From contig MNHO01000011.1 of assembly GCA_001919285.1 (NCBI GenBank), positions 1-38,515 on the forward strand: 38,515 bases of DNA, read 5' to 3'. Shown here in pieces: positions 1 to 7,530 of this stretch; position 1 is the first letter of the stretch; every line of letters starts with the position of its first letter. The position numbers and the translations under genes were made by a program. Below the pieces are notes generated by a model. It ran no database searches. It was given only the letters and a program-made list of their open reading frames with translations, and was not told where the DNA came from. This DNA is from an archaeon 13_1_40CM_2_52_13. GTDB lineage: Archaea > Thermoproteota > Bathyarchaeia > 40CM-2-53-6.

Positions 1-250
1 CGAGTGAGTAGAAGGGATGTTCCGGGGTTGTCTCCACCGAGTAGCCGTTTCGAAGGGTTACTTTGACGAGCTTGTCGCTGTGAAGTTTCCAGACTTGGGA
101 GACGTTCCGATCCTCGATCATCATAGTGTTGGGATTGAAGGAGTCTACTTGGAGTGGGGCCGGCCCTGTTCTCTTCAGTTTCGAGTAGACCTGGGCGATC
201 TCCTCGATCTGACCGTCGGATAGGGTTACCAGACTGTCTCCGCTTACGCA
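1..250 (-). other. N-terminal part of an intein (splicing domain) inserted after HVDHGK of aEF-2
   Basis: CVSGDSLVTLSDGQIEEIAQVYSKLKRTGPAPLQVDSFNPNTMMIEDRNVSQVWKLHSDKLVKVTLRNGYSVETTPEHPFYSL: block A-like Cys1 start (CVSGDSLVTL) and block B-like TxxH (TTPEHPF). The open frame runs off the window. Confidence 0.9.
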
Positions 251-349
251 CTTTCCATGGTCTACGTGTGCGATGATGCCGATGTTGCGGACTTGGTCCT
301 TGTTGGAGACGATTTTGAGAATGTCTGCTGAGCTTTTGAATCGGGGCAA
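1..349 (-). CDS. fusA: Archaeal elongation factor 2 (aEF-2), N-terminal extein of 33 aa, TTG start, interrupted by an intein and truncated by the window edge
   Basis: Reverse-strand translation from TTG at 349: MPRFKSSADILKIVSNKDQVRNIGIIAHVDHGK, a canonical aEF-2 N-terminus and GTPase P-loop. It continues in frame into CVSGDSLVTLSDG... An in-frame stop lies just upstream. Confidence 0.9.
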   Translation of the reverse strand, partial: MPRFKSSADILKIVSNKDQVRNIGIIAHVDHGKCVSGDSLVTLSDGQIEEIAQVYSKLKRTGPAPLQVDSFNPNTMMIEDRNVSQVWKLHSDKLVKVTLRNGYSVETTPEHPFYSL

Positions 350-5619: not shown

Positions 5620-7530
5620 CTATTTCAACTCCTTGACGATCGAGCTGCCTTCGACATTCTGCACAACGACAACGTGGACTTGGTCTTCGCTGGGCAGGGA
5701 TAACTGTCCCGGAGTTATGGCAATGTACTGGCTCGTGTCCGTCGTCTTTGAGGCCGCGTGGATGAGTCGAGAAACAGTCTCTCGGTTCTTAGGGTCCATG
5801 TGAACGTCGAACTCATCAATTGCCCGGAAGGGCGATGAGATGAACTGTTGGAGTGACAGGAGGAACGCGATCAGAGCGACGGTACGTTCTCCGCCACTAG
5901 GGGCGAGGCTGTCTAGGGACACCGGTTCATTTCCCTTGAAGCCCGCGTAGAGTTCGAGGCCCGCTTTCTCGATGTTCTTCGAGGACTTGAGGTCGATTCT
6001 TCCCCTGGCTCCAACTTCTTCGAGCAGGTTGCTGTACCGGGCTGAGAGGTCTTCGAGAAGTTTTCCCATGACGGTTTTCCAACGGTCAAACCGTCCTAGC
6101 AGCTCTCCCAAGACCTCGGATCTGTTTTGCTCTACGACCTCGGCCTTCTTCCTTAGATCTTCATACACGTCGCCGTATGTCTTGAACATCTTCTCCACAT
6201 CGGCTGAGAGGTGCGCGAGCGGACGAATCCTTTCCTGAACTGCGGCCGTCTCTAAGGTCACATCGTGCAGGTCTCTTGGATTCTCGAAGACTGGTCCGAG
6301 CTGGAGCGCCTGGGTTCTTATTGGTGCTAGTTCTTCTTCGCCGAGTCCTAGTTGGACTTGGAGCTCTTGAACTTCTTGAGCCATCATTGAAAGCTTGAAG
6401 CTGTTGACTTCGGACTTGACCTTCGATTCAACAAGTAGATCCGTGCTCTTCGTAAGATGTCCTGACAGTTCGGCGATCTTTGAGCGCACCCGGGCGTATT
6501 CTGTCTCGTCCAGTTGTGCGGTATTGGATATTTTCTCATGCTCTTGATTCAGCTCCGCCAGTGTCTGTCTTAGTTGATCATTCTGCTCAGCCCCGGGTGT
6601 GACTAGATCTCTGAATCTTGCTATCCATTCAAGCGAGCCTGAGCGGAATCCGCGACTATGCTCGAGTTTCAGGTGTTCTTCGCGGAATGTTTCAAGTTCT
6701 TGGCTTACTCGATCAAGTTCGCTGGAGAGTTTGAGGTGTTCCTTTTGGGCCGAGTCTAGTTCTTCCTTAGCGTCTTCCGATTTTCTCTGGAGAGAGGATA
6801 TTCTGTCCTGGAGCCGCTTCTGGGACGCTTCTTTTCTAAGGATTCTGCGCCAAGTTAGTTCTCTCTGGAGATCCTTGAGCTGTTGTTCGAGTTTCTTCTT
6901 CGTCTCATATTTTTCGTATTCTCTCTGCCAGTGGAGGTAGGTCTCTCTCGTCCCTTCGATGACAGAGGACATTGTTTCTCGTTCAGTCGTGAGCTTCTGT
7001 AGTCGGTCGCTTGCCTCTAGGACTTCTTTGCGGTACGCGCCGAATCCGACCGCGTCTTCGAGGAGCAGAAGCTTTTCGATTGGGCTCACCGTTCCGAAGC
7101 GTCCAACCATTAGCTGGTGCATTATCACAAGCATATTGTCAGGGTTGAGTCCGATCTTGGAGAGTCCTTCCATTAGGCTAGTCCTAGAGACGGGTTTGTT
7201 GTTGAGAAGATAGTGGTAGTCACCCGACCGTTTGAGGATGCGGGTGAGTAGAATCTTATCGCTCCGCGCTTGTGGGAAGGGTCTTGGACCTTTTTCTGAT
7301 TCGTTGTCGAGCAGGACGGAGATTCGCGCCTGGTCTTCGCCCCAGCGGATTAGTTCGCTGAGCTTTCTGGATCTCTCCGTGTATGCTTGTCCAAGTACTA
7401 CTGATATTCCGAGGAGGATGGAGGATTTTCCTGCGCCGTTGGGTCCGACGATAAGATTTAGGCCGGGTTCTAGTGGAATGCTTGCGTTCTTGTAGCTCAT
7501 GAAGTTGGTGAGCTGTACTTCGCGGATCAA
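5620..7530 (-). CDS. Compact SMC5/6-like (SMC/Rad50 superfamily) ATPase, 636 aa
   Basis: Walker A LNLIVGPNGAGKSSILLGISVVLG; coiled-coil middle; signature and Walker B LAPSGGERTVALIAFLLSLQQFISSPFRAIDEFDVHMDPKNRETVSRLI; TSQYIAITPGQL resembles SMC5 TSQYFLITPKLL. Confidence 0.85.
   Translation of the reverse strand: MIREVQLTNFMSYKNASIPLEPGLNLIVGPNGAGKSSILLGISVVLGQAYTERSRKLSELIRWGEDQARISVLLDNESEKGPRPFPQARSDKILLTRILKRSGDYHYLLNNKPVSRTSLMEGLSKIGLNPDNMLVIMHQLMVGRFGTVSPIEKLLLLEDAVGFGAYRKEVLEASDRLQKLTTERETMSSVIEGTRETYLHWQREYEKYETKKKLEQQLKDLQRELTWRRILRKEASQKRLQDRISSLQRKSEDAKEELDSAQKEHLKLSSELDRVSQELETFREEHLKLEHSRGFRSGSLEWIARFRDLVTPGAEQNDQLRQTLAELNQEHEKISNTAQLDETEYARVRSKIAELSGHLTKSTDLLVESKVKSEVNSFKLSMMAQEVQELQVQLGLGEEELAPIRTQALQLGPVFENPRDLHDVTLETAAVQERIRPLAHLSADVEKMFKTYGDVYEDLRKKAEVVEQNRSEVLGELLGRFDRWKTVMGKLLEDLSARYSNLLEEVGARGRIDLKSSKNIEKAGLELYAGFKGNEPVSLDSLAPSGGERTVALIAFLLSLQQFISSPFRAIDEFDVHMDPKNRETVSRLIHAASKTTDTSQYIAITPGQLSLPSEDQVHVVVVQNVEGSSIVKELK

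What the first reader, a model, noticed from the sequence alone, without database searches (positions are those of the whole stretch)
1..349. Intein splitting the P-loop of archaeal elongation factor 2
The minus strand reads MPRFKSSADILKIVSNKDQVRNIGIIAHVDHGK|CVSGDSLVTLSDG...GYSVETTPEHPFYSL. Insertion falls inside the G1/P-loop (GHVDHGK^TT), so unspliced EF-2 could not bind GTP and translation would depend on splicing. P-loop NTPases are known intein targets, and IF2 inteins exist. I cannot tell from memory whether this aEF-2 site has been catalogued.
Basis: partly seen in the sequence, partly recalled or inferred. Interest (0 to 1): 0.85.

Follow-up and report, generated by a model that had tools for sequence, protein, structure and literature searches.

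The report
Intein in archaeal elongation factor 2
A soil archaeon's single, essential protein-synthesis factor EF-2 is interrupted in its GTP-binding loop by a self-removing mobile protein (an intein), and in related archaea the same few codons are instead interrupted by tiny RNA-level introns.

Summary
Window 2-349 (minus strand) encodes the start of archaeal EF-2 up to ...HVDHGK, followed in frame by the start of an intein splicing domain (Cys1, TPEH block). The contig then ends, so the window alone proves neither the intein's end nor EF-2 resumption. Relatives settle this. A same-genus Bathyarchaeota genome with 91% identical DNA carries the whole 539-aa intein, ending ...VVHN^TTMTDS, followed by EF-2. 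Eight intein-bearing relatives have one EF-2 copy each, with the intein in it, so splicing should be obligatory. The intein carries a two-motif LAGLIDADG homing endonuclease, is under purifying selection, and is present or absent among sister species at the exact K^T junction. The same site is occupied in several other archaeal lineages. It is an ordinary class of element at a site I found no record of. Unexpectedly, relatives carry 29-45-nt bulge-helix-bulge introns around the same P-loop codons, two of them within 1 nt of the intein site; one gene has both intron and intein. A 2020 paper names cbf5 as the only other archaeal mRNA with such an intron. Splicing and homing are inferred, not tested.

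The parts
251..349 (-). N-terminal extein: first 33 codons of archaeal EF-2 (TTG start at 347-349), ending in the G1/P-loop residues AHVDHGK (251-271)
   Evidence: Translation; aEF-2 and GTP_EFTU matches; 81-83% identical N-termini in intein-free EF-2 of the same genus
2..250 (-). N-terminal 83 residues of the EF-2 intein (start of the HINT splicing domain); truncated by the contig end
   Evidence: intein_Nterm E 2.1e-16; 90% identical to the start of the complete 539-aa intein of L033/G016
212..250 (-). Splicing block A, CVSGDSLVTLSDG, with the nucleophile Cys1 (codon at 248-250)
   Evidence: Cys1 invariant in 18 EF-2 inteins
17..28 (-). Splicing block B, TPEH (TxxH motif)
   Evidence: Thr, Glu and His of TPEH invariant, Pro at least 90%, in 18 EF-2 inteins

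Best explanation
This is a class-1, homing-endonuclease-bearing intein inserted between Lys and Thr of the G1/P-loop (HVDHGK^TT) of the only EF-2 gene of a soil Bathyarchaeia archaeon. The gene is translated as one EF-2(N)-intein-EF-2(C) precursor. The intein uses Cys1, the TPEH block and the terminal His-Asn with Thr at +1 to cut itself out and ligate the two EF-2 parts, restoring the GTP-binding loop. The embedded LAGLIDADG enzyme most likely cuts empty EF-2 alleles at this very conserved DNA, so the element spreads by homing and is lost at times. Shown: position, motifs, single-copy host gene, intact catalytic motifs, purifying selection, empty sister alleles (the parts beyond window base 1 in relatives only). 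Inferred: the splicing reaction, endonuclease activity, and dependence of translation on splicing.
For: Intein and EF-2 domains either side of the junction. Complete relatives: 539-aa intein, C1...VVHN^TTMTDS, EF-2 continuing. One EF-2 body per genome, contiguous with the intein (in G012 across two contigs that overlap by exactly 126 nt). Motifs YLLGLLWGDG and FLRGEFDTDG with Asp retained within the genus. dN/dS about 0.12-0.19 in unsaturated pairs, similar in splicing and endonuclease parts. AlphaFold model of the L033 intein pLDDT 91.4; best PDB matches are the TliVMA intein (E 5e-22), intein homing endonuclease II 2cw7 and PI-PfuI. Precise empty site HVDHGKTTMTD in same-genus species interleaved with intein carriers on the EF-2 tree; 6 changes of state, at least 5 forced by well-supported branches.
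Against: The window holds only 83 residues of the intein; the C-terminal splice junction of this organism is unseen. No expression or proteomic data. Activity of the endonuclease is inferred from motifs and selection only; in two related lineages (L040, L041) its motifs have decayed.
Confidence: 0.93

Rival explanations
1. The intein has become a regulatory switch: splicing is conditional (for example on temperature, redox or GTP state), so that EF-2 activity and translation are held back until splicing occurs, as proposed for the RadA P-loop intein of Pyrococcus horikoshii.
For: Insertion inside the catalytic loop of a single-copy essential factor. P-loop inteins with extein-dependent splicing are documented for RadA (PMC5790916). 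Splicing domain under purifying selection.
Against: Sister species of the same genus lack the intein and keep ordinary EF-2. The endonuclease part is conserved about as strongly as the splicing part, as expected of a selfish element. No sequence evidence for a sensor was found.
Confidence: 0.08
2. Dead or pseudogene copy: the interrupted EF-2 is non-functional and another EF-2 does the work.
For: The own assembly is 52% complete and lacks any EF-2 body, so absence of a second copy cannot be shown in it.
Against: All eight intein-bearing relatives have exactly one EF-2 body, in frame with the intein; open frames of 1061-1332 aa without stops; low dN/dS.
Confidence: 0.02
3. Split (trans-splicing) intein: the contig ends inside the intein because the two EF-2 halves lie apart in the genome.
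For: Two genomes (own and G012) have contigs ending in nearly the same place, at TPEH.
Against: The two G012 contigs overlap by exactly 126 nt inside the intein, the mark of an assembly break; the closest relative G016 and six other genomes encode one continuous frame.
Confidence: 0.02
4. Assembly or binning chimera joining EF-2 to an unrelated intein.
For: The piece is short and at a contig end.
Against: Separately binned relatives show the same junction, the nearest at 91% DNA identity over 348 nt, and the same site is filled in several other archaeal lineages.
Confidence: 0.01

Closest known systems
Archaeal IF2 inteins at the P-loop (GHVDHGK^T)
   Same: Same class of element, same K^T junction in a homologous translational GTPase; NCBIfam model PRK14845 (IF-2, an intein-bearing form) matches the L033 precursor over profile positions 13-372
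   Different: Host gene is EF-2. On the splicing-domain tree the IF2 inteins sampled here fall in two groups, neither inside the Bathyarchaeia/Nitrososphaeria EF-2 group
A-type ATPase catalytic subunit inteins at GTGK^T (TliVMA, PhoVMA; PDB 7qss, 7qst)
   Same: Best structural match; splicing domain plus LAGLIDADG; homologous inteins in same-phylum genomes also sit between K and T of the P-loop
   Different: Unrelated host protein; 14-18% sequence identity over the structural alignment
Pyrococcus horikoshii RadA mini-intein
   Same: Inserted in the P-loop of an important NTPase; splicing can be coupled to the host domain (PMC5790916)
   Different: Lacks the endonuclease; different host; conditional splicing not shown here
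cbf5 pre-mRNA intron of Crenarchaeota (for the introns noticed in relatives)
   [quoted passage not shown])
   Different: Different gene; here three positions within 12 codons of the EF-2 P-loop, 29-45 nt long; the window's own gene has none

Membership tests
Intein (class 1) | In-frame insertion in a conserved host protein, flanks of the host on both sides | tested here: met
   N flank in the window; both flanks in L033-L036, L038, L097, L098 and others
Intein (class 1) | N-terminal nucleophile Cys/Ser and TxxH block B | tested here: met
   Cys1 and TPEH in the window; invariant or nearly so in 18 EF-2 inteins
Intein (class 1) | C-terminal His-Asn followed by Cys/Ser/Thr | tested here: met
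   HN^T in all 18 complete EF-2 inteins compared. In the window genome itself the contig ends first, so not testable there
Intein (class 1) | HINT fold of the splicing domain | tested here: met
   Predicted model of the L033 intein, pLDDT 91.4; top PDB matches are inteins
Intein (class 1) | Protein splicing occurs | not testable with these tools
   Needs expression
Homing (LAGLIDADG) intein | Two LAGLIDADG motifs with catalytic acidic residues | tested here: met
   LAGLIDADG_3 E 8.9e-16 in L033; both motifs with Asp within the genus; beyond the window fragment
Homing (LAGLIDADG) intein | Empty allele with an intact target site in close relatives | tested here: met
   HVDHGKTTMTD uninterrupted in G002, G003, G006, G008, G011
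Homing (LAGLIDADG) intein | Endonuclease cleaves the empty site | not testable with these tools
   Needs a cleavage assay
IF2 P-loop intein lineage | Common descent with IF2 inteins to the exclusion of other inteins | tested here: inconclusive
   Splicing-domain tree places EF-2 and IF2 inteins in two mixed groups with modest deep support; EF-2 inteins as one clade not rejected, p-AU 0.138
Archaeal bulge-helix-bulge intron (relatives only) | 4-bp central helix, two 3-nt bulges, cuts after bulge nt 2 restore the frame | tested here: met
   8 of 14 loci strictly, 5 more with relaxed pairing, 1 not; shuffled-insert control 0-2 of 300 for 12 of the 13 and 9 of 300 for L082
Archaeal bulge-helix-bulge intron (relatives only) | Cleavage by splicing endonuclease and exon ligation in the cell | not testable with these tools
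   Needs RNA data or an in vitro cleavage assay

The most novel reading that the evidence does not exclude
The EF-2 P-loop is a double hot spot: within 12 codons, and at one point within a single nucleotide, archaeal EF-2 genes have been invaded by two unrelated kinds of removable insert, protein-level inteins and RNA-level bulge-helix-bulge introns, in G026 both in one gene. The extremely conserved P-loop DNA may serve as the target for both, and such an EF-2 gene then depends on two different splicing systems before it can serve translation elongation.
Probability: 0.6. Interest if true: 0.78.

Novelty: new member of a known kind. Interest (0 to 1): 0.58.

Why it matters
EF-2 is single-copy and needed for every step of translation elongation, yet it is split through its GTP-binding loop, so the cell should live or die by protein splicing; this offers a clean test of whether P-loop inteins are merely tolerated parasites or regulators. 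The occurrence of bulge-helix-bulge mRNA introns at the same few codons in neighbouring lineages, including one gene with both, would extend archaeal mRNA introns beyond cbf5 and make 'why the P-loop?' directly testable (target DNA for homing enzymes, or tolerance of insertions there).

Tried and rejected
A second EF-2 or the rest of the intein in the own assembly: not found; the weak hits are other intein or LAGLIDADG-like proteins. Split intein: rejected by the 126-nt contig overlap in G012. Long EF-2 frames in G539 and G469, suspected of a second intein site: these run through stretches of N, no intein. Halorubrum paper mentioning inteins and ef-2 (PMC3990103): ef-2 there is only a typing gene. 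Centring a genome search on Halorutilus: not accepted by the tool. The main intein survey paper (Novikova 2016, doi 10.1093/molbev/msv271) is not held, so cataloguing of the EF-2 site could not be excluded. Bulge-helix-bulge geometry failed for L079 under every setting and needed relaxed pairing for five others.

Full report
Observation. The minus strand of window 1-349 is one open frame that runs off the contig end. It reads LPRFKSSADILKIVSNKDQVRNIGIIAHVDHGK, the start of archaeal EF-2, then CVSGDSLVTLSDG...TPEHPFYSL, the start of an intein. Independent profile matches fall on each side of K33: aEF-2 on residues 4-45 and GTP_EFTU on 19-47; intein_Nterm on 34-114 at E 2.1e-16. The first codon is TTG. 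The window is contig C45 of a 1.5-Mb, 52%-complete MAG, and no other part of EF-2 or of this intein is in that assembly.

What the relatives show. The window fragment found the same junction in seven further genomes of the genus and in one of the same order; the named records are mostly 'Candidatus Bathyarchaeota' MAGs. The nearest, G016 = VBAW01000019 (L033), is 91% identical over 348 nt and encodes the whole element: 539 aa from CIGGDS to GNHTFIANGMVVHN, then TTMTDSLLAGAG and the EF-2 body up to its own contig end. Pfam finds Intein_splicing, LAGLIDADG_3 and the EF-2 domains. AlphaFold gives pLDDT 91.4; the best PDB matches are the TliVMA intein, intein homing endonuclease II (2cw7) and PI-PfuI.

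Is EF-2 single copy? In all eight intein-bearing relatives, six of them at least 90% complete, the aEF-2 profile finds one body and it is continuous with the intein. In G012 the gene lies on two contigs that overlap by exactly 126 nt inside the intein, so the breaks there and at window base 1 are best read as assembly breaks, not split genes.

Function and mobility. The splicing residues are conserved across 18 EF-2 inteins from several archaeal lineages: Cys1, T, E and H of TPEH, and the terminal His-Asn are invariant. Both LAGLIDADG motifs keep their aspartates within the genus; L040 and L041 have lost theirs. Within the genus dN/dS is about 0.12-0.19 for the whole intein where dS is not saturated, similar in the splicing and endonuclease parts (a simple Nei-Gojobori count with domain boundaries set by me). 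Intein-free species (G003, G006, G008, G011) sit among intein-bearing ones on the EF-2 tree, which needs six changes of state, at least five forced by well-supported branches. Together this points to a working element with repeated gain or loss.

Distribution. A scan of 85,488 species genomes for the junction peptides found the EF-2 insertion also in Nitrososphaeria, Geothermarchaeota, Hadesarchaea, Micrarchaeota, Halobacteriales MAGs and Halorutilus salinus. Patterns were taken from one protein, so the list is a minimum. In 260 genomes of the window's class the intein was seen only in its own genus and in G026. On the splicing-domain tree the Bathyarchaeia-Nitrososphaeria-Geothermarchaeota EF-2 inteins form one group (97/92) and the other EF-2 inteins lie elsewhere, with IF2 inteins in both halves; one origin of EF-2 inteins is not rejected (p-AU 0.138).

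Unexpected neighbours of the site. In other families of the window's order the EF-2 frame breaks at R21^N22. A pattern for this break hits 13 of 260 class genomes, all in one order, with no hits for the reversed-pattern control. The inserts read as bulge-helix-bulge introns: cutting after nucleotide 2 of each 3-nt bulge restores ...QIRNIGIIAHVDHGK. A different position, H28^V29, is used in G038 (L084), and the K33 codon itself, one nucleotide from the intein junction, in G052 (L085) and G465 (L104). A scripted test found the strict geometry plus restored protein in 8 of 14 loci and relaxed geometry in 5 more; shuffled inserts did so in 0-2 of 300 for all but L082 (9 of 300). G026 has the R21^N22 intron and the intein about 11 codons apart. 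The window's own gene has the intein only. A 2020 paper, besides its own 5'UTR case, states that cbf5 was the only other archaeal mRNA with such an intron reported (PMC7714728).

Literature. Full-text searches for EF-2 inteins, Bathyarchaeota inteins and EF-2 introns found none. Only open-licence papers were searchable, and the main intein survey was not held, so 'uncatalogued' is not proven. NCBIfam showed no model named for an intein-bearing EF-2 among the families listed.

Verdict. The element is an ordinary homing intein at an unusual and consequential address. The pairing with RNA introns at the same codons is the more surprising part and rests on sequence evidence only.

Noticed in passing
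L011/L097 (G026), L074-L083, and one search hits in 13 genomes of the window's order: 29-39-nt bulge-helix-bulge introns with in-frame stops split EF-2 at R21^N22; canonical cuts restore IRNIGIIAHVDHGK. G026 has this intron and the EF-2 intein in one gene.
   Followed up: yes
L085 (G052) and L104 (G465), EF-2 gene: 29-30-nt bulge-helix-bulge introns inside the K33 codon of HGK^TT, within 1 nt of the intein insertion point, in two families of the class where no EF-2 intein was seen.
   Followed up: partly
L084 (G038), EF-2 gene: 45-nt bulge-helix-bulge intron at AH^VDHGK, a third position near the P-loop.
   Followed up: partly
L038 around 5926-6024 (G004): EF-2 5' end upstream of KQIRNIG does not match the family N-terminus; a different start, a degenerate intron or an assembly fault.
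   Followed up: no
L090-L096 (IF2) and L099, L101 (A-type ATPase) in same-phylum genomes: Inteins at the K^T junction of P-loops in IF2 and the ATPase catalytic subunit, some IF2 ones without room for an endonuclease (156-162 aa).
   Followed up: partly
window:9286-14594: Cluster of a von Willebrand/ArnB-like protein, metallophosphoesterase, FHA protein and a divergently transcribed 773-aa protein kinase: looks like an archaeal phospho-signalling locus.
   Followed up: no
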